DNA of 53,212 nt from contig JAKONK010000013.1 in assembly GCA_022701985.1 (NCBI GenBank), positions 1 to 53,212 of the forward strand, given 5' to 3'. Source of the stretch: Actinomycetales bacterium. Lineage in GTDB: Bacteria > Actinomycetota > Actinomycetes > Actinomycetales > Quadrisphaeraceae. The notes beneath the pieces were generated by a model. The model was not told where the DNA came from, made no database searches, and saw nothing but the letters and a program-made list of their open reading frames with translations. Positions 45,173 through 53,212 of the stretch are shown in pieces. Within the stretch, counting starts at the first letter, position 1; each line of letters opens with the position of its first letter. The translations under genes and the position numbers were made by a program.

Positions 45173-47623
45173 TCAGCGGGTGACGTCGAGGGCGGCCGCG
45201 ACGAGGCTGTCGACGTCGAGGCCTTGGTACCGGTAGACGCTGTCGAGGTCACCGGACTGCCCGAACCTCGTGACGCCCAGGTGCCGCGCCGGCTGGCGGT
45301 GCACCCCCGCCAGGAAGGCGAGCGTGTGCGGGTGGCCGTCGAGCACCGTGAGCAGCGGTGCCGCCCGTGACGCCGGGAGCGCTGCCTCCAGCACCCACGT
45401 GGGCGCCTGCGCCGACCCGCCCGTCGCCACCGCGGCCGGGCCCGAGCCGCTGCGCGCCTGCAGCGCCTCGAAGAGCCGTCCCGGGCTGGTGACCACGACG
45501 ACGTCCGCCGCCACGCCCTGCGCCGCGAGCCGGTCGGCGGCGGCCAGGGCCTCGCTGACCACCGCGCCGACCACGGCGATGGTCAGCGCCGGACGCTCGA
45601 CCTCGGCGCGCCGCAGCGGGTAGGCCCCCGCCACCACGAGGTCGCGGCGCCGCCGCCGCGCCGCGGGGTCGGTCGGCACCGAGGCCAGCGACTGGTCGAC
45701 CGGGCGCGTCGACAGGCGCAGGTACGTCGAGGACCCGTCGGTCCGCCCCAGGCGCGACAGGCCGTCCAGCAGGCACCACTCGGTCTCCACGGCGAACGCC
45801 GGCTCGAAGGCCACGCACCCCGGCTGCTCCAGCCCGAACGACGGCGTGGTCACCGACTGGTGCGCCCCGCCCTCCGGCGCGAGCGTCACCCCCGACGGCG
45901 TCCCGACGAGGATCGACTGCCCGCCGGCGTACATGCCGAACGTCCACGGCTCGGCCGCCCTCATCACGAACGGGTCGTAGAGCACGCCGACCGGCAGCAG
46001 GGGCTCGCCCCAGCGGCTCCAGGTGGCGCCCAGCTCGCCGAGCAGGCCCACGAGGTTGGTCTCGGCGATGCCCAGCTCCACGTGCTGCCCGCTGGGCCGC
46101 TCGCGCCAGTGCAGGAGGGTCTCGGCGTCGTCGGCGAACCAGTCGGTCCGCTCCGCGGAGGACCACACGCCCACCTTGTTGACCCAGCCCCCGAGGTTGG
46201 TGCTGGAGCTGACGTCGGGGCTGACGGTCACCACCCGCCCGGCGACGGCGGGTGCGGAGCGGGACAGGTCGAGCAGGGCCCGCCCGAGGGCGGCCTGCGT
46301 GGTGCCCGTGCCGGTGGGGGTGTGCCCGAGGTCGACCGGCACGTCGGCCACGGCGGAGGACGACGACGGCGGCGCGGGGTCGCGGCGCAGGCGCTCGCAG
46401 GCGGCGCGGCACAGCTCGTCCTCGGGGGAGCCGGGCTCGAAGCGCTGCCACGGGTGCGCCGGGTCGACGCCGGAGCGCCGGGCCAGCTCCTCCACCTGCT
46501 CGGTCTTGAGCAGCGCGGAGTGGTTCTGCGGGTGGCCCTCCACCGGCAGCCCGTGGCCCTTCACCGTGTAGGCGACCACGACGGTGGGCCGGGTGTCCTC
46601 GACCCTGTCGAAGGCCTCCAGCAGCGCCCCTAGGTCGTGCCCGCCGAGGTTGCGGACGGCGGCGAGCAGGGCGGCGTCGTCGACCTCGGCCACCAGCGCG
46701 GCGATCTCGGCGGCGCCGGGGCCGTCGCCGGGGAGCTGGTCGCGCACCCCGGCGGCGTCGCGGCGCAGCAGCCGCTGGTACTCGGGGTTGGTCATGGCGT
46801 CGATGCGAGCGCGCAGCGCGCCGCCGCCGGTGCGCTCGAACAGCTCGCCCAGCAGGTGCCCGTACTTGACGGTGATGACCTGCCACCCGGCGGCGGCGAA
46901 CATGCCCTCCAGCCGCTCGGCGCCCAGCGTGGGCACCACCCGGTCCAGGCTCTGGCGGTTGAAGTCGACCACCCAGCAGACCTCGCCGAGCTCGGCGACC
47001 ATCGGGTCGAGCACGGCCTCCCACACCGCGCCCTCGTCCATCTCCGCGTCGCCGACCAGCGCGAACTGCCGGCCCGGACCGGTGGAGCCGCCGTGCGCGT
47101 CGACGTAGCGGCGCGCCAGCGCGCCCCAGAGCGGGGCTGTGGCGCCCAGGCCCACGGAGCCGGTGGAGTAGTCGGCGGGCACCGGGTCCTTGGTGCGGCT
47201 GGGGTAGCTCTGCAGGCCGCCGAGCTCGCGCAGCGTGGTCAGCCAGCGCTCGTCGAGGCGGTGCTGGAGGTACTCCACCGCGTGCAGCACGGGGGAGGCG
47301 TGCGGCTTCACCGACACCCGGTCGCCGGCGCGCAGCACCGAGAAGAACAGCGCCGTCATGATCGTGGTCATCGAGGCGCTGGAGGCCTGGTGACCCCCCA
47401 CCTTGAGGCCCGTCGGGTTGGGGCGGACCCGGTTGGCGTGGTGCACCTGGGCGACGGCGAGCCACCGCACCCGCTCCTCGACGCGCCCGAGCAGCTCCAG
47501 CTCGGAGCCGGAACGGGCGCCGCGGGCAGCGCCCTCCGGGTCGGAGGAGCCGGCGCCGGCCTGCTGCACCCCCGCCGCGGCAGCGACGGCCGAGGCCGCC
47601 TGGCCGGTCGTCGGGGCGCTCAC
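45173..47623 (-). CDS. Transketolase-like / homodimeric pyruvate dehydrogenase E1-like enzyme
   Basis: The 816-residue thiamine-diphosphate enzyme has the single-chain E1 (AceE-like) layout. NPTGLKVGGHQASSASM lies near the start. The cofactor motif VGDAEMDEGAVWEAV leads to VVDFNRQSLD, the catalytic Glu is in LGIAETNLVG, and a transketolase C-terminal domain follows. The first 40 residues are an Ala-rich tail. It is probably an oxo-acid decarboxylating or transketolase-type enzyme, but the substrate is unknown and no E2 or E3 gene is adjacent. The GTG at 47623 overlaps the HMG-CoA lyase stop (GTGA). Confidence 0.85.
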   Translation of the reverse strand: MSAPTTGQAASAVAAAAGVQQAGAGSSDPEGAARGARSGSELELLGRVEERVRWLAVAQVHHANRVRPNPTGLKVGGHQASSASMTTIMTALFFSVLRAGDRVSVKPHASPVLHAVEYLQHRLDERWLTTLRELGGLQSYPSRTKDPVPADYSTGSVGLGATAPLWGALARRYVDAHGGSTGPGRQFALVGDAEMDEGAVWEAVLDPMVAELGEVCWVVDFNRQSLDRVVPTLGAERLEGMFAAAGWQVITVKYGHLLGELFERTGGGALRARIDAMTNPEYQRLLRRDAAGVRDQLPGDGPGAAEIAALVAEVDDAALLAAVRNLGGHDLGALLEAFDRVEDTRPTVVVAYTVKGHGLPVEGHPQNHSALLKTEQVEELARRSGVDPAHPWQRFEPGSPEDELCRAACERLRRDPAPPSSSSAVADVPVDLGHTPTGTGTTQAALGRALLDLSRSAPAVAGRVVTVSPDVSSSTNLGGWVNKVGVWSSAERTDWFADDAETLLHWRERPSGQHVELGIAETNLVGLLGELGATWSRWGEPLLPVGVLYDPFVMRAAEPWTFGMYAGGQSILVGTPSGVTLAPEGGAHQSVTTPSFGLEQPGCVAFEPAFAVETEWCLLDGLSRLGRTDGSSTYLRLSTRPVDQSLASVPTDPAARRRRRDLVVAGAYPLRRAEVERPALTIAVVGAVVSEALAAADRLAAQGVAADVVVVTSPGRLFEALQARSGSGPAAVATGGSAQAPTWVLEAALPASRAAPLLTVLDGHPHTLAFLAGVHRQPARHLGVTRFGQSGDLDSVYRYQGLDVDSLVAAALDVTR

Positions 47624-48630
47624 CGGGCGCTCCCGGCACCCGCGGCGACGGCCCGCTGGGTCTGGCGCGGATCCGCGCCCTCCGGCAGGGGTCTCGGCCG
47701 GGACCGGCCCCCGGCCCGCAGCAGGCCGCTGGGGAGGTCGTGCCCCACCAGCCGCTGCGCCAGCCCCGCCGCCGTGAGCACGGCGTCGGCGTCCACGCCG
47801 GTGCTCACCCCGGCGTCGTCGAGGAGGTAGAGCAGCGCCTCGGTGGCGATGTTGCCGCTCGCTCCGGGCGCGAAGGGGCAGCCGCCCATGCCGCCGACGG
47901 AGGCGTCGAGCTGGTCGACGCCGGCGAGCATCGCGGCCAGGGCGCTCGCGATCCCGGTGCCGCGGGTGTCGTGGAAGTGCGCCCCCAGCGGCACCGGACC
48001 CGCGGCGTCGCGCACCGCACCGACCAGCTCGACCACCCGGGCGGGGGAGGTGGTGCCGATGGTGTCGCCCAGGCAGAGCTGGTCGGCGCCCAGCTCGACC
48101 GCGCGGGCGGCCACGCCGGCGGTGCGGGAGGTGGGGACGACGCCGTCGAAGGGGCAGTCCCACGCCGTGGCGATGATCACCTCCAGGCGGCCTCCAGCGC
48201 TGCGGACGACGTCGGCCACCTCGGCCACGGCCTCCAGCGCCTCGCCCGTGGAGCGGCGCGCGTTGGCGCGGCTGTGCCCCTCGGCGGCCGAGACGACGTA
48301 CTCGACGGTCCGCAGGCCCGCCGCCACGGCGCGGCGGGCGCCGTTCGGAGAGGCGGCCAGGGCCGAGAACTCCACGCCGGCGCCCGGTGCGCCGGGTGCC
48401 GACAGCTCGGCGACGACCTCGGCCACGGCCTCGGCGTCGGCCAGGGAGGGCACCGCCCGCGGGGAGACGAAGGCGGTGGCCTCCAGGCGCGGGACGCCCG
48501 TGGCGACCAGGGCCCGCAGGAGCTCGAGCTTGGCCTCGGTCGTGATCGGCGCCTCGATCTGCAGGCCGTCGCGCATGCCGACCTCGCGGATGCTCACGGT
48601 CGCCGGCAGCGGCAGGGTGGGGGAGCTCAC
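47620..48630 (-). CDS. Hydroxymethylglutaryl-CoA lyase family protein
   Basis: The 336-residue protein has the TIM-barrel lyase pattern: IREVGMRDGLQIEAPITTEA, LEATAFVSPRAVPSLAD and, near the end, VGGMGGCPFAPGASGN with the active-site Cys loop and the metal-binding HFHDTRGTG. The family cleaves 3-hydroxy-3-methylglutaryl-CoA or related hydroxyacyl-CoAs to acetyl-CoA and an oxo acid or acetoacetate. The true substrate is undetermined. GAAGGGA lies before the GTG at 48630. It is coupled to the downstream E1-like gene. Confidence 0.9.
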   Translation of the reverse strand: MSSPTLPLPATVSIREVGMRDGLQIEAPITTEAKLELLRALVATGVPRLEATAFVSPRAVPSLADAEAVAEVVAELSAPGAPGAGVEFSALAASPNGARRAVAAGLRTVEYVVSAAEGHSRANARRSTGEALEAVAEVADVVRSAGGRLEVIIATAWDCPFDGVVPTSRTAGVAARAVELGADQLCLGDTIGTTSPARVVELVGAVRDAAGPVPLGAHFHDTRGTGIASALAAMLAGVDQLDASVGGMGGCPFAPGASGNIATEALLYLLDDAGVSTGVDADAVLTAAGLAQRLVGHDLPSGLLRAGGRSRPRPLPEGADPRQTQRAVAAGAGSAR

Positions 48631-48671
48631 GGTGTTCCCTTCGTCGATCGGGTCGTGCACGATCTGGTCTC

Positions 48672-49595
48672 GTGGACTACGCAGGAGCCAGAGAAGCCTT
48701 CTTCCAGCCCCGTCCCGCCGGTTCCGCTGCTGCGGGCACCGACGACTGGGACGGTCCCGGCCGCGCGCTGCGCGCGGCCATCGAGCCGATCGCCACGATC
48801 TGCTTCTGGAGCGAACCCGCCAGCGAGGTGTACGGGCGCATCGGCCTGGACTTCCTCACCGGCTACGTCTGGTCGCGCGGGTGCGTGCTGGGCGAGCCGG
48901 AGCCGACGGTGGTCGCCTCCGCCTTCGCGGTGTTCGAGCCGTCGGTCATCGCCGGGCTCTACGAGGCGGCGCGCTCCGCAGCGCCGCTGGCAGCGGTCCG
49001 GGCCGCCCGCGAGGAGGCGGCCGTGACGTCGCTGACCGCGGTGCTCGGCGACCCCCGCGGCGAGGTCGCCGGCGAGCTCGAGCGCACCACCGAGGCCCTC
49101 GAGCGCGGTGTGGCCGCCATCGACACCACCGGGCGCCCCATGAGCGCCGGTCTGGCCGCGCTGCCCGTGCCGAGCGACCCGTGGGGCCGCCTGTGGCACG
49201 CCGCCACGCGGCTGCGCGAGTTCCGCGGCGACAGCCACGTCGCCGCCTACCTCGCCTCGGGAATCACCGGGCTGGAGGCCAACCTGCTCACCGAGCGCCG
49301 CATCGGCTGGGAGCCGTTCGCCTACACCGGCACGCGCGCCTGGAGCCCGGAGGTGATGGGCGCGGCGGTCGAGGGCCTGCGTGAGCGCGGCCTGCTCGAG
49401 GGCGACGCCCTCTCCGAGCACGGCCGGGCCGTGCGCGACGAGGTGGAGGCCGTCACCGAGCGCCAGCTCGCCCCCGTGCGCGACGCGATCGGCGGGGAGC
49501 TGCCCGCGGTCACCGCCACCTGCTCGGCGTGGTCGGAGCGCATCGTCGAGCGGGGCTGGTTCCCGCCCGACCCGTACAAGCGCGCCGGCGGCTGA
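48672..49595 (+). CDS. SCO6745 family protein, possible winged-helix C-terminus
   Basis: The 307-residue protein resembles the actinobacterial SCO6745 family. It has a helical N-terminal domain (PIATICFWSEPASEVYGRIG, FLTGYVWSRG). Its C-terminal segment (AAVEGLRERGLLEG, LSEHGRAVRDEVEAVTE) looks like a MarR-type recognition helix and wing. A regulatory role is therefore conceivable, but the family has no established function. It diverges from the HMG-CoA lyase gene across 41 bases and is the only plus-strand gene in the last 14 kb. Confidence 0.7.
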   Translation: MDYAGAREAFFQPRPAGSAAAGTDDWDGPGRALRAAIEPIATICFWSEPASEVYGRIGLDFLTGYVWSRGCVLGEPEPTVVASAFAVFEPSVIAGLYEAARSAAPLAAVRAAREEAAVTSLTAVLGDPRGEVAGELERTTEALERGVAAIDTTGRPMSAGLAALPVPSDPWGRLWHAATRLREFRGDSHVAAYLASGITGLEANLLTERRIGWEPFAYTGTRAWSPEVMGAAVEGLRERGLLEGDALSEHGRAVRDEVEAVTERQLAPVRDAIGGELPAVTATCSAWSERIVERGWFPPDPYKRAGG

Positions 49596-49626
49596 GCCCG
49601 GCCGCCCACCCGCAGACGGACCAGCA

Positions 49627-49678
49627 GGGCGGGGGACGGCGACGGCGGGCCAGCGCTCGCCGTCGTCGTCCCCCGCCC
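49627..49678. terminator. Bidirectional hairpin between SCO6745 and ADH genes
   Basis: A 21-bp stem (49627-49647 with 49658-49678) with one G-T wobble and a 10-base loop occupies the gap between convergent genes, 31 bases after the SCO6745 stop. Confidence 0.75.
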
Positions 49679-49687
49679 CGCGGTGCG

Positions 49688-50707
49688 TCACGGCGCGACG
49701 ACCACCTTGATGGCCCCGCCCGACTTGGAGTCGGCCACCGCGAACGCCTCGGCGATCTCGTCGAGGGAGAAGCGGTGCGTCACCATCGGCTCCAGCTCGA
49801 TGCGACCGGTGCGCACCAGCTCCAGCGCCCGCTCGTACTGCCCCCGGCCGCCGTTGCCGCCGATCCCGTAGACCGTGAGGGTCTTGGCCATCACCGGGAT
49901 CACGGGGATCGGCGGCAGGTCGTTGGCCCAGCCGATGTGGACCAGCTTGCCCTCCTTGCGCACCAGGTCGATGGCGCTGGCCACCGACGCCGGTGAGCCG
50001 GACGTCTCGATGACGATGTCGGCGCCGTTCCCGTCGGTGAGCTCGAGCACGGCCTCCTTGACGTCGCGCTCGAGCACGTTGGTGGTCTCGGTGGCGCCGA
50101 AGCTCCGGGACACCGAGAAGGGCGCCTCGCGGGCGTCGGTGACGATGAGCTGGCCCGCACCGGAGAGAGCGCACAGCCGCGTCAGCGACAGGCCGATCGG
50201 GCCCTGCCCCAGCACGACGACCGACTCGCCCAGCTTGATGCCGAGCCTGTCGACGGTGTTGAGGCCCACGGCCAGCGGCTCCAGCAGGCTCGCCTGCCAC
50301 GCCTCCACACCGTCGGGGCGCGGTACGAGGTTGACCTGCGGCACCGCCACCTTCTCGGTGAGGCACCCGTCGGACCACAGCCCGATGAGCTTCTTCCTCT
50401 TGCAGTCCAGGAGCTTGCCGGCGCGGCACTCGGCGCACTCGGTGCACGGCAGCGACGGCTTCACGGCCACAGGGGTGCCGACGAGGGAGGGGTCGACGCC
50501 CTCGCCGACGGCCTCGACGCGGCCGGCGAAGTCGTGCCCGGGCACCCGCGGGAACGGGGTGTCGATGCGACCGTCGTACTGGTGGGCGTCGGTGCCGCAC
50601 AGCGACGCCGACTCCACCCGCACCACCACCCACCCCGGCCCGGCGACGGGCTCGGGGCGCTCCTGCAGCTCGACCTGCCTGATGCCGGTGAGGACGGCGG
50701 CGCGCAT
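49688..50707 (-). CDS. Zinc-dependent medium-chain alcohol dehydrogenase
   Basis: This 339-residue MDR dehydrogenase has the catalytic zinc Cys in ASLCGTDAHQY and His in PGHDFAGRVEA. Four structural-zinc cysteines appear in LPCTECAECRAGKLLDC. The NAD-binding turn is VVVLGQGPIGLSLTRL. It oxidises an alcohol or polyol to an aldehyde or ketone, with unknown substrate. The ATG at 50707 overlaps the DinB stop by one base (TGATG), so the two are probably in one operon with the CoA-transferase and aldehyde dehydrogenase. Confidence 0.9.
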   Translation of the reverse strand: MRAAVLTGIRQVELQERPEPVAGPGWVVVRVESASLCGTDAHQYDGRIDTPFPRVPGHDFAGRVEAVGEGVDPSLVGTPVAVKPSLPCTECAECRAGKLLDCKRKKLIGLWSDGCLTEKVAVPQVNLVPRPDGVEAWQASLLEPLAVGLNTVDRLGIKLGESVVVLGQGPIGLSLTRLCALSGAGQLIVTDAREAPFSVSRSFGATETTNVLERDVKEAVLELTDGNGADIVIETSGSPASVASAIDLVRKEGKLVHIGWANDLPPIPVIPVMAKTLTVYGIGGNGGRGQYERALELVRTGRIELEPMVTHRFSLDEIAEAFAVADSKSGGAIKVVVAP

Positions 50708-51246
50708 CAGGCGGCACCCCCGGAGGTGACGGCGTCGGCCTGCTCCTGGCTGACGGCGCCGCGGTCCACCAGGATCGTCAGGGCCTGGGGCACGTGGCTC
50801 GACAGGTGCCCGGTGATGAGCGGGGTCCACTCGCCGAGGGTCAGCGTGCCCAGGTCGGGGATCTCCACCACGCGCTCCAGCAGCTCCGGCTCGATGGCGG
50901 GCAGGGCGGTGCGCAGCGAGCGGCGGGTGCTGGCCAGCTGCGCCACCGCGAGCTCCACCGAGGGCGGCGGGTAGCCGGTGAGGTCGTGGCCGACCTCCTC
51001 CCGGAAGAAGAAGCGCAGCTCGGGGTCGGCGCGGAGCCGGGCGACGTCGCCCAGCCACACCAGCGTGCAGACGTTGATGTGGCTGACCACCTGGGCGACC
51101 GTCCACCCGCCGTCGCGGTGGGCGCGGTGCAGGTCGACGTCGGACAGCTCGCCCAGCAGCTCCTGGAGCCTGCCGAGCTCGGCGTCGATGGCCGCGGCGG
51201 CCGCCGCGGGGGGTGTCGGAGCGGGGCGCTCGTCAGTGGTGGTCAT
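50707..51246 (-). CDS. DinB-fold protein
   Basis: The 179-residue four-helix protein has the DinB-like pattern with metal-binding histidines in GGWTVAQVVSHINVC and ITGHLSSHVPQAL. Family members include thiol-dependent (mycothiol or bacillithiol) transferases and isomerases. The cofactor and substrate are unknown here. A strong AGAGGAG precedes the ATG at 51246. It sits between a CoA-transferase and an alcohol dehydrogenase. Confidence 0.78.
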   Translation of the reverse strand: MTTTDERPAPTPPAAAAAAIDAELGRLQELLGELSDVDLHRAHRDGGWTVAQVVSHINVCTLVWLGDVARLRADPELRFFFREEVGHDLTGYPPPSVELAVAQLASTRRSLRTALPAIEPELLERVVEIPDLGTLTLGEWTPLITGHLSSHVPQALTILVDRGAVSQEQADAVTSGGAA

Positions 51247-51309
51247 GGCGACTCCTCTGTCGTCGGTGGGGGCTGGCTGGCCTGGGGGGCTCGTGGCGGG
51301 GGCGGCGGG

Positions 51310-52545
51310 TCAGATGACGCCGTCGCGCCGCAGCGCGGCGACCTCGTCGTCGTCGAGGCCGGCCTCGCGCAGCACGTCGTCGGTGTGCTGGCCGAGGTGC
51401 GCGCCCGACCAGCGCACCGACCCGGGCGTGCGCGAGAGCTTGGGAGCCACGTTGGGCATGAGCACCGGGCCGACGCCCTCGGCCTCGACCTCGACGAGGC
51501 TCTGCCTCGCGGCGAAGTGCGGGTCGGCGGCCATGTCGGCGGGGCCGTACAGCAGGCCGGCCGGCACGCCCGCGGCGTGCAGGGCCTCCAGCAGGTCGGC
51601 GGAGGGCTGCGGCGCCGACCACTCGCCGATGAGGGCGTCCAGCTCGGCCATGTTCGCCCCGCGGGACCGGTGGTCCACGAAGCGCGGGTCCCGTGCCAGC
51701 TCGGGGGCGCCCATCGCCGCGCAGAGGCGGGCGAAGACGCTGTCCTGGTTGGCGGCCAGCAGCACCTGCCCGTCGGCGGTGGGGTAGACGTTCGACGGCG
51801 CGATGCCGTTGAGCGTGGGGCCGGTGCGGTGCCGCTCCAGGTGCGCCACCGCCCACTCCGGCACCAGCGCCTCGGTGATGGCGAGCACCGACTCGTAGAT
51901 CGACGCGTCCACCACCTGCCCGCGGCCGGTGCGGGTGCGCTCCTGGAGCGCCGCCAGCGCTCCGAGGGCGCCCATGAGCCCGGTGAGGGAGTCGCCCAGG
52001 GACACCCCGACCCGGGTCGGCGGCCGGTCGGGGTAGCCGGTGAGCGAGCGCAGCCCTCCCATGGCCTCGCCGATCGCCGCGTACCCGGCGCGCTGGGAGT
52101 ACGGCCCGGTCTGCCCGAACCCGGAGATCCGCACGAGCACCAGGCCGGGGTTCTGCGCGGACAGCTCCTCGTAGCCCAGGCCCCAGCGCTCGACGGTGCC
52201 GGGCCGGAAGTTCTCGACGACGACGTCGACCTCGCGGGCCAGGCGGCGCACGAGCGCCTGCCCGGCCGGCTGGCGCAGGTCGACCGTCACCGAGCGCTTG
52301 TTGCGCCCCGCCACGCGCCACCACAGCGAGTCGCGCTCGTCGGGGCTCCAGCCCCACTGGCGCAGCACGTCGCCCACCTCCGGCGGCTCGACCTTGACCA
52401 CGTCGGCTCCGAGGTCGGCGAGCATCTGCCCGCAGAACGGCCCCGCGATGACCTGGCCCAGCTCCAGCACGCGCACGCCGGCCAGCGGCCCCGTGGAGGG
52501 GGCGTCCGCCGTCGTGCTCTGCTGCTCCTGCGGCTGCGCCGTCAT
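51310..52545 (-). CDS. Family III CoA-transferase (CaiB/BaiF/Frc)
   Basis: The 411-residue CoA-transferase opens with LAGVRVLELGQVIAGPFCGQ, and ADLGADVVKVEPPE and VTVDLRQPAG are conserved. The catalytic Asp lies in GVSLGDSLTGLMGALGAL, matching the family Asp. It moves CoA between carboxylic acids. The ATG at 52545 overlaps the aldehyde dehydrogenase stop by four bases. The family includes formyl-CoA, carnitine-CoA and bile-acid CoA transferases, so the acid is not predicted. Confidence 0.92.
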   Translation of the reverse strand: MTAQPQEQQSTTADAPSTGPLAGVRVLELGQVIAGPFCGQMLADLGADVVKVEPPEVGDVLRQWGWSPDERDSLWWRVAGRNKRSVTVDLRQPAGQALVRRLAREVDVVVENFRPGTVERWGLGYEELSAQNPGLVLVRISGFGQTGPYSQRAGYAAIGEAMGGLRSLTGYPDRPPTRVGVSLGDSLTGLMGALGALAALQERTRTGRGQVVDASIYESVLAITEALVPEWAVAHLERHRTGPTLNGIAPSNVYPTADGQVLLAANQDSVFARLCAAMGAPELARDPRFVDHRSRGANMAELDALIGEWSAPQPSADLLEALHAAGVPAGLLYGPADMAADPHFAARQSLVEVEAEGVGPVLMPNVAPKLSRTPGSVRWSGAHLGQHTDDVLREAGLDDDEVAALRRDGVI

Positions 52546-53212
52546 CCCAGCGTGAACGGATCGCGGGTGGCGCCGGTCAGCTCCACCCAGACGGACTTGT
52601 TCTCCGTGTACTCCCTGACCGCGTCGACGCCGTTCTCGCGGCCGATGCCGCTGGCGCCGAAGCCGCCGAACGGCACGTGCGGGCCGACGACGCGGTAGGC
52701 GTTCACCCACACCGTGCCGGCGCGCAGGCGCGCGGCCACCCGGTGGGCGCGGTGCACGTCCTTGGTCCACACCGAGCCGGCCAGGCCGAACTCCGTGCCG
52801 TTGGCCAGTGCGACGGCCTCGTCCTCGTCGGTGAAGGTGCTCACCGCGACGACCGGCCCGAAGACCTCCTCGCGGACCACGCGCAGATCGGGCGTGGCAC
52901 CCACCACCACGGTCGGCTCCACGAAGTACCCGCCGAGCGCCTCGTGGGCCCTGCCGCCGGTGGCGATCGAGGCGCCCTGCTCGCGGGCGGAGGCGAAGTG
53001 GCTGAGCACCGTCTCGTACTGCTTGCCGGTGGCCATCGGGCCCATCTCGGTGTCCTCGTCCAGCGGGTCTCCCACCACGATGGTCTCCGCGCGCGCCACC
53101 ACCTTCTCCACGAGGGCGTCGGCGACGTCGGCGTGGGCGATGACGCGCGAGCCCGCCATGCAGGTCTGCCCGCTGGCCGCGAAGACGCCGGCGATGATCC
53201 CGTTGGCGGCGG
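52542..53212 (-). CDS. NAD(P)-dependent aldehyde dehydrogenase (N-terminus missing)
   Basis: Only the C-terminal 222 residues are in the window, and the frame is open to the edge. The catalytic cysteine lies in ASGQTCMAGSR. Later blocks REEVFGPVVAVSTF, NGTEFGLAGSVWTKD and PFGGFGASGIGREN are typical. It oxidises an aldehyde to a carboxylate and is coupled to the CoA-transferase downstream through a four-base overlap. The specific substrate is unknown. Confidence 0.93.
   Translation of the reverse strand, partial: AANGIIAGVFAASGQTCMAGSRVIAHADVADALVEKVVARAETIVVGDPLDEDTEMGPMATGKQYETVLSHFASAREQGASIATGGRAHEALGGYFVEPTVVVGATPDLRVVREEVFGPVVAVSTFTDEDEAVALANGTEFGLAGSVWTKDVHRAHRVAARLRAGTVWVNAYRVVGPHVPFGGFGASGIGRENGVDAVREYTENKSVWVELTGATRDPFTLG

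What the first reader, a model, noticed from the sequence alone, without database searches (positions are those of the whole stretch)
45173..53212. Unassigned catabolic cluster: ALDH, CoA-transferase, DinB, alcohol dehydrogenase, HMG-CoA lyase, E1-like enzyme
Read as a pathway, an alcohol could be oxidised to an aldehyde and an acid, activated with CoA by the CaiB-type transferase, cleaved by the lyase, and the resulting oxo acid decarboxylated by the thiamine enzyme. The genes overlap or nearly overlap in two blocks (53212-49688 and 48630-45173), separated by an SCO6745 gene. I know of no described pathway with this exact gene set. The DinB-fold protein suggests a thiol-cofactor step.
Basis: inference. 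Interest (0 to 1): 0.6.

Follow-up and report, generated by a model that had tools for sequence, protein, structure and literature searches.

The report
Conserved alcohol-degradation gene cluster in actinobacteria
Seven neighbouring genes in this bacterium form a real, recurring unit found in distant actinobacteria, most likely an undescribed route that oxidises an alcohol to an acid, attaches coenzyme A, splits the molecule and burns the leftover oxo acid; the actual food molecule is still unknown.

Summary
Observation confirmed; interpretation partly supported. Window 45173-53212 encodes ALDH (cut by the contig end), class III CoA-transferase, DinB-fold protein, zinc ADH, SCO6745-family protein (other strand), HMG-CoA-lyase-like protein and an E1-like thiamine enzyme. 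The set recurs. DinB homologues were found in 15 species across Nocardioides, Marmoricola, Williamsia, Actinomycetospora and Solirubrobacterales. Nine Nocardioidaceae loci carry all seven genes plus an AraC regulator as one compact unit with nothing conserved outside. Gene order differs from the window's, and the window's CoA-transferase, lyase and E1 belong to other subclades, so the same activities seem to have been assembled twice. SCO6745 belongs to the set. The six genomes lacking a local E1 carry one elsewhere (background 9-20%). A 36-bp tandem AraC-type operator precedes all three transcription units in most relatives. Outside the cluster the E1 often sits next to ACC deaminase or methionine gamma-lyase, both 2-oxobutyrate producers, and once overlaps an E2 gene, so it is probably the E1 of a 2-oxobutyrate-type dehydrogenase. 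Proposed route: alcohol, aldehyde, acid, acyl-CoA, lyase to acetyl-CoA-type product plus 2-oxo acid, E1 to acyl-CoA, with a thiol-transferase step. Substrate unknown. I found no described pathway with this set in the papers searched.

The parts
52542..53212 (-). aldehyde dehydrogenase, C-terminal part including the GQTC catalytic Cys; cut by the contig end
   Evidence: Pfam Aldedh 255 bits; 69-70% identical to the ALDH of the Nocardioides and Marmoricola clusters
51310..52545 (-). class III (CaiB/FRC-type) CoA-transferase, GDSLTG motif with the catalytic Asp
   Evidence: Pfam CoA_transf_3 425 bits; best NCBIfam match succinate-glutarate CoA-transferase, far below its cutoff; human SUGCT 236 bits in the PDB
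50707..51246 (-). DinB/YfiT-fold protein, putative mycothiol S-transferase, with conserved His triad H56/H147/H151
   Evidence: Pfam DinB_2 and MDMPI_N above cutoff; 15-sequence alignment; AlphaFold model pLDDT 87 matches YfiT and, less well, M. tuberculosis mycothiol S-transferase
49688..50707 (-). zinc-dependent alcohol dehydrogenase of the threonine/sorbitol dehydrogenase type; four-Cys structural zinc site present
   Evidence: 65-80% identical in the relatives that carry it; no ADH match at E<=1e-50 in the 19 other genomes tested
49624..49681 (.). 27-nt inverted repeat between the convergent ADH and SCO6745 genes, terminator-like
48672..49595 (+). SCO6745-family protein (HTH_67), C-terminal MarR-like winged helix
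   Evidence: NF047719 198 bits, cutoff 120; HTH_67 248 bits; model pLDDT 91 and MarR matches at Z about 7-8; 41-53% identical in relatives, in the same antisense position in the Nocardioidaceae and Williamsia loci
48646..48669 (.). imperfect palindrome (core TCGTGCACGA) in the short SCO6745/HMGL divergent gap; possible operator, not conserved in relatives
47620..48630 (-). HMG-CoA-lyase-family (DRE-TIM) enzyme; RDG, HFH and GGC...GNIATE active-site motifs kept; start 48630 or 48660
   Evidence: NF004283 263 bits, cutoff 246; motifs
45173..47623 (-). E1-like thiamine enzyme, probable E1 of a 2-oxo acid (2-oxobutyrate-type) dehydrogenase; lacks the first ~70 residues of E. coli AceE
   Evidence: neighbours of homologues

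Best explanation
The seven genes are one catabolic unit, shared with distant actinobacteria by descent, transfer and partial re-assembly. The zinc ADH and the ALDH oxidise an alcohol through the aldehyde to a carboxylic acid. The class III CoA-transferase puts CoA on it, probably from succinyl-CoA. The HMGL-type lyase cuts the resulting 3-hydroxyacyl-CoA by retro-Claisen cleavage into acetyl-CoA (or a homologue) and a 2-oxo acid. The E1-like enzyme, with an E2/E3 of the cell, converts that 2-oxo acid (2-oxobutyrate or similar) to an acyl-CoA. On this model the activated acid is of the 2-alkylmalate type, R-C(OH)(COOH)-CH2-COOH, with R ethyl (2-ethylmalate) or methyl (citramalate). The DinB protein is a mycothiol S-transferase acting near the start, and SCO6745 is a MarR-like regulatory or accessory protein. 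Shown: genes, set conservation, coupling, shared operator in relatives, E1 context. Inferred: step order, the chemical class of the acid, the thiol step. Unknown: the substrate.
For: Set recurs as a compact 8-gene unit (with AraC) in 9 Nocardioidaceae loci with unconserved flanks. HMGL-CoAT-E1 are translationally coupled there (mostly 4-bp overlaps) and DinB-ADH overlap or abut in all, window included. The window has a different gene order and non-orthologous CoAT, HMGL and E1 copies doing the same jobs. The 6 genomes with the DinB core but no local HMGL/E1 have E1 (58-62% identity) and HMGL (49-62%) elsewhere, against 23/248 order genomes and 43/216 Nocardioides with E1. CoAT+HMGL is a frequent adjacent pair. 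E1 homologues sit next to ACC deaminase in 8 order loci and 6 Nocardioides loci, next to methionine gamma-lyase or similar in 1 and 8 more, and overlap an E2 gene in L176. In most relatives a 36-bp tandem operator lies before DinB, HMGL/CoAT and ALDH. DinB fold and His triad.
Against: No substrate, transporter or biochemical datum. E1 scores far below the AceE equivalog cutoff (219.7 vs 859.9), and no E2 is in the cluster itself. Williamsia keeps CoAT without local HMGL or E1. The core DinB-ADH-SCO6745 occurs without CoAT in some genomes. The HMGL copies outside the cluster in the six genomes may serve other pathways: three lie beside hydantoinase-type genes. The window's own AraC and operators were not found.
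Confidence: 0.5

Rival explanations
1. Mevalonate-type route: ADH and ALDH oxidise mevalonate to 3-hydroxy-3-methylglutarate, the SUGCT-like transferase makes HMG-CoA and the lyase gives acetoacetate plus acetyl-CoA. E1 then serves something else.
For: The first four reactions fit exactly; CoAT resembles human SUGCT, which is named for HMG; HMGL passes the HMG-CoA lyase subfamily cutoff.
Against: Acetoacetate is not a 2-oxo acid, yet E1 is translationally coupled to HMGL-CoAT and its homologues sit next to 2-oxobutyrate-forming enzymes. The lyase motif HFHNTR / HFHDTR differs from the HDTY form that I recall for true HMG-CoA lyases. DinB unexplained.
Confidence: 0.15
2. Polyol or 1,2-diol route: ADH, ALDH and E1 handle a C4 diol (for example 1,2-butanediol via 2-hydroxybutyrate to 2-oxobutyrate), while CoAT/HMGL process a separate by-product.
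For: ADH is of the sorbitol/threonine dehydrogenase type; E1 context points to 2-oxobutyrate; an ALDH-E1 pair exists without the other genes in L039/L040.
Against: HMGL, CoAT and E1 are coupled in one operon, and all three activities were re-assembled in the window.
Confidence: 0.12
3. Thiol-conjugate (epoxide or detoxification) route: DinB adds mycothiol to an electrophile, ADH and ALDH oxidise the conjugate, CoAT activates it as in isoprene degradation.
For: DinB has the YfiT / mycothiol S-transferase fold with metal triad; mycothiol-type neighbour genes (PIG-L next to DinB in L124); an LLM flavin monooxygenase near DinB in L122 and under the operator in L170.
Against: No monooxygenase, thiol-release enzyme or isoprene-type oxygenase is conserved in the unit. 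HMGL and E1 are not part of the isoprene scheme as I know it.
Confidence: 0.15
4. Loose assembly of common catabolic genes with no joint pathway.
For: Each family is common alone; E1 and CoAT/HMGL occur separately in many genomes.
Against: Repeated full set in several genera, shared operators and coupling.
Confidence: 0.03

Closest known systems
Leucine catabolism, HMG-CoA lyase step
   Same: Same lyase family, NF004283 above cutoff
   Different: No isovaleryl-CoA dehydrogenase or methylcrotonyl-CoA carboxylase genes among the neighbours tested; lyase is paired with a class III CoA-transferase and a 2-oxo acid E1
(R)-citramalyl-CoA route (family III CoA-transferase plus DRE-TIM lyase, as in the 3-hydroxypropionate bicycle; own knowledge)
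   Same: Same two reaction types, giving acetyl-CoA plus a 2-oxo acid
   Different: Here the acid would be fed by ADH/ALDH, and the 2-oxo acid goes to a dedicated E1; substrate specificity untested
Pseudomonas putida mdeAB (methionine gamma-lyase with an E1-like 2-oxobutyrate enzyme; own knowledge, no paper found)
   Same: E1-like enzyme next to a 2-oxobutyrate producer, as seen for homologues of this E1
   Different: In this cluster the 2-oxo acid would come from a CoA-dependent lyase, not from an amino acid
Isoprene degradation (iso) cluster
   Same: Alcohol/aldehyde dehydrogenases, CoA-transferase and a thiol-transfer enzyme (own knowledge; PMC9804861 listed, abstract start only)
   Different: No isoprene monooxygenase or GST; has HMGL, E1, SCO6745 and a DinB-type thiol transferase
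Bacillithiol / mycothiol S-transferases (YfiT, BstA, Mst)
   Same: Fold and metal-binding His triad of the DinB protein
   Different: Only ~20% identity; thiol dependence not tested; embedded in a catabolic unit

Membership tests
HMG-CoA lyase family (DRE-TIM) | NF004283 score above cutoff and active-site RDG, HxH, GGC and GN.ATE motifs | tested here: met
   262.8 vs 246 bits; motifs
HMG-CoA lyase family (DRE-TIM) | HMG-CoA as the true substrate | not testable with these tools
   needs enzyme assay
Class III CoA-transferase | CoA_transf_3 domain with catalytic Asp in GDS.TG | tested here: met
   425 bits; GDSLTG read in the sequence
Succinate-glutarate / SUGCT CoA-transferase (NF052585) | score above equivalog cutoff 750 | tested here: not met
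   307.6 bits
Homodimeric pyruvate dehydrogenase E1 (aceE) | TIGR00759 cutoff 859.9 | tested here: not met
   219.7 bits
Homodimeric pyruvate dehydrogenase E1 (aceE) | N-terminal region (E. coli residues 1 to about 70, E2 contact by own knowledge) | tested here: not met
   alignment starts at AceE residue 73; Nocardioides copies begin only a short stretch earlier
Homodimeric-type 2-oxo acid dehydrogenase E1 (wider family) | coupling to an E2 | tested here: inconclusive
   E2 gene overlaps E1 in L176; no E2 in the cluster itself
DinB/YfiT metal-dependent thiol transferases | DinB fold with H...HxxxH metal triad | tested here: met
Mycothiol-dependent enzyme TIGR03083 | domain cutoff 50 bits | tested here: not met
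   27.4 bits
SCO6745 family | NF047719 above cutoff 120 | tested here: met
   197.8 bits
Isoprene degradation cluster | multicomponent isoprene monooxygenase genes | tested here: not met
   none among the conserved genes of the unit
iad indole-3-acetate degradation | Rieske oxygenase IadDE with IadC reductase | tested here: not met
   none among the conserved genes; definition from PMC12633357

The most novel reading that the evidence does not exclude
An undescribed actinobacterial pathway that degrades an alcohol through a mycothiol-assisted oxidation, CoA transfer, HMGL-type cleavage and a dedicated 2-oxobutyrate-type dehydrogenase. It would give the SCO6745 family and this DinB clade their first physiological role, and the lyase-transferase-E1 module would have been assembled independently at least twice.
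Probability: 0.35. Interest if true: 0.7.

Novelty: new variant of a known kind. Interest (0 to 1): 0.55.

Why it matters
A compact, recurring catabolic unit with a predicted regulator and operator makes the unknown substrate directly findable by an inducer screen in culturable Nocardioides or Williamsia. It also gives genome context to a family of unknown role (SCO6745) and ties an E1-like enzyme, hit only by low-scoring pyruvate dehydrogenase or transketolase models, to 2-oxobutyrate-type metabolism.

Tried and rejected
1) E1 as a stand-alone decarboxylase feeding the ALDH: suggested by the missing N-terminal region and ALDH neighbours, dropped after an E2 gene was found overlapping E1 in L176. 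2) Indole-3-acetate or isatinate degradation: suggested by the AndR-like AraC and hydantoinase neighbours of CoAT/HMGL; the published iad genes do not match. 3) Isoprene-type cluster: no oxygenase conserved. 4) Searching the own genome for the missing ALDH half and an AraC orthologue: not found. 5) Plasmid records with DinB or ADH: no match. 6) A conserved palindrome for SCO6745 in the divergent gap: none shared. 7) Rfam in the region: nothing. 8) SCO6745 fold search: only MarR-like matches of middling Z for the C-terminal part; the N-terminal part was not searched alone. 9) Papers on the gene set, SCO6745 or mdeB: none found in the library.

Full report
OBSERVATION. The window is the whole contig C287 of a 3.8 Mb, 289-contig assembly. 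A codon-usage gene caller trained on the region gives the same genes. Spacing in the window: ALDH/CoAT overlap 4 bp, CoAT-DinB 63 bp, DinB/ADH overlap 1 bp, ADH and SCO6745 converge across 92 bp that hold a 27-nt inverted repeat, SCO6745 and HMGL diverge with 11 bp between the called starts (41 bp if HMGL starts at 48630), HMGL/E1 overlap 4 bp.

CONSERVATION. The five same-genus genomes sampled carry neither E1, HMGL, CoAT nor DinB at the thresholds used. DinB is rare: 1 of 395 class genomes besides the window's own, and that genome has all seven genes in one place. A scan of 84,980 species with a two-sequence DinB profile gave 15 close homologues. In nine Nocardioidaceae loci the order is DinB-ADH-(SCO6745 antisense)-HMGL-CoAT-E1-AraC-ALDH, with nothing conserved beyond it. 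Two Williamsia loci lack HMGL and E1. Actinomycetospora and Solirubrobacterales have subsets: DinB with ADH, SCO6745 or ALDH. Loci with the full set appeared again in a Nocardioides sample (several may be the same strains as those).

TWICE-ASSEMBLED MODULE. ADH is 76-80% identical between the window and the Nocardioidaceae and Williamsia relatives (65% in Actinomycetospora), but CoAT and HMGL are only about 44% and 40% identical to those of L121. In trees, the window's E1 groups with L033 (99/96) and lies in another starred clade than the Nocardioidaceae copies; HMGL groups with L113 (95/93); CoAT lies outside the starred clade of the Nocardioidaceae and Williamsia copies. Some branches are long and the sampling is limited, so exact positions are unsure, but the window copies do not look like the orthologues of the Nocardioidaceae ones. 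The simplest reading is that the same three activities were recruited or replaced independently, which argues that all three are needed.

CO-OCCURRENCE. The six genomes with the DinB core but no E1/HMGL next to it all have E1 (58-62% identity) and HMGL (49-62%) elsewhere. Background for E1: 23/248 order genomes, 43/216 Nocardioides. These genomes are related in part, so no p-value is claimed. An ADH match at E<=1e-50 was absent from the 19 other genomes tested, most of which have E1 but no DinB.

REGULATION. The conserved AraC gene scores best against AndR, below its cutoff. A 36-bp tandem motif TGC-N6-CGG(ACA)-N6-TGC-N6-CGG(ATA), 21-bp period, was seen by eye in the SCO6745/HMGL gap and then scanned. 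Among 11 loci with the AraC unit, a site scoring 12 or more of 15 lies in the SCO6745..HMGL (or CoAT) gap in all 11, before DinB in most, and before ALDH in all but one (in one locus it falls inside a mis-called fused gene); background at 13 or more is about 0.1-0.2 per 20 kb. L121, L127 and L131 show no clear site before DinB, and L131 none before ALDH. In Actinomycetospora the same motif precedes an LLM flavin monooxygenase and an FMN reductase-RibB-ALDH unit. The weight matrix was built from these same Nocardioidaceae and Williamsia sites, so its scores on them are not independent; the L170 sites were not in it. The window has no such site and no AraC orthologue in the assembly, perhaps because the contig ends.

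WHAT THE PARTS DO. CoAT+HMGL: adjacent in many order genomes, beside a CitS-type symporter or hydantoinase-type genes, which suggests CoA activation followed by cleavage of hydroxy di-acids. E1: aligned to AceE from residue 73, with equivalents of H142, Y177, H407 and E571 kept (residue numbers from own knowledge of AceE). Outside the cluster it sits next to ACC deaminase (8 order loci, one typed and the rest linked by similarity; 6 Nocardioides loci) or methionine gamma-lyase or a lyase like it (8 Nocardioides loci, 4 of them at only 36-37% identity). ACC deaminase and methionine gamma-lyase both release 2-oxobutyrate. In L176 it overlaps an E2 gene, with CoAT, two hydantoinase-type genes and HMGL close by. 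DinB: model pLDDT 87, best matches YfiT, then other DinB proteins including M. tuberculosis mycothiol S-transferase. SCO6745: model pLDDT 91, C-terminal MarR-like winged helix, Z up to 8, which by the tool's own note is suggestive only.

MECHANISM. Coupling of HMGL, CoAT and E1 in one operon plus the E1 context point to: acid, acyl-CoA, retro-Claisen cleavage to acetyl-CoA (or homologue) and a 2-oxo acid, then oxidative decarboxylation. ADH and ALDH would supply the acid. Chemistry then requires R-C(OH)(COOH)-CH2-CO-SCoA, so 2-ethylmalate or citramalate types are the best guess for the activated acid; this is inference. The thiol step is inference from fold only.

CONFIDENCE. One functional unit: about 0.95. 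E1 acts on a 2-oxo acid made by the lyase: about 0.7. That acid is 2-oxobutyrate: about 0.45. DinB thiol-dependent: about 0.55. Whole scheme as stated: about 0.5, with the substrate left open.

Noticed in passing
L176:5237-16518; L105:1065-9392; L178:2833-10424; L182:1054-10408: A second recurrent actinobacterial cluster: GntR, CoA-transferase, two hydantoinase/caprolactamase-type subunits, an isochorismatase-type hydrolase and an HMGL-type lyase; in L176 with an E1-E2 pair next to it. Looks like breakdown of a cyclic imide or lactam to a hydroxy di-acid.
   Followed up: partly
L042-L048, L050, L226, L233, L236, L248-L250; L041, L229, L230, L251, L252: E1-like gene next to ACC deaminase or methionine gamma-lyase, a probable 2-oxobutyrate dehydrogenase context in Nocardioides and other genomes.
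   Followed up: partly
L170:12926-19778: In Actinomycetospora chiangmaiensis an LLM flavin monooxygenase and an FMN reductase-RibB-ALDH unit share the tandem operator next to an AraC relative, suggesting an oxygenation step in that lineage.
   Followed up: partly
L124:8218-9779: PIG-L (mycothiol-type deacetylase family) and GNAT genes next to the DinB-ADH-SCO6745 core in a Solirubrobacterales MAG.
   Followed up: no
L039:7244-11180; L040:8758-12668: E1-like plus an ALDH (84% identical to the Nocardioides one) as a two-gene pair without DinB or ADH, in large genomes of the same order.
   Followed up: partly
window 48646-48669: Imperfect palindrome around TCGTGCACGA in the SCO6745/HMGL divergent gap, possibly an operator; not shared by relatives.
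   Followed up: partly
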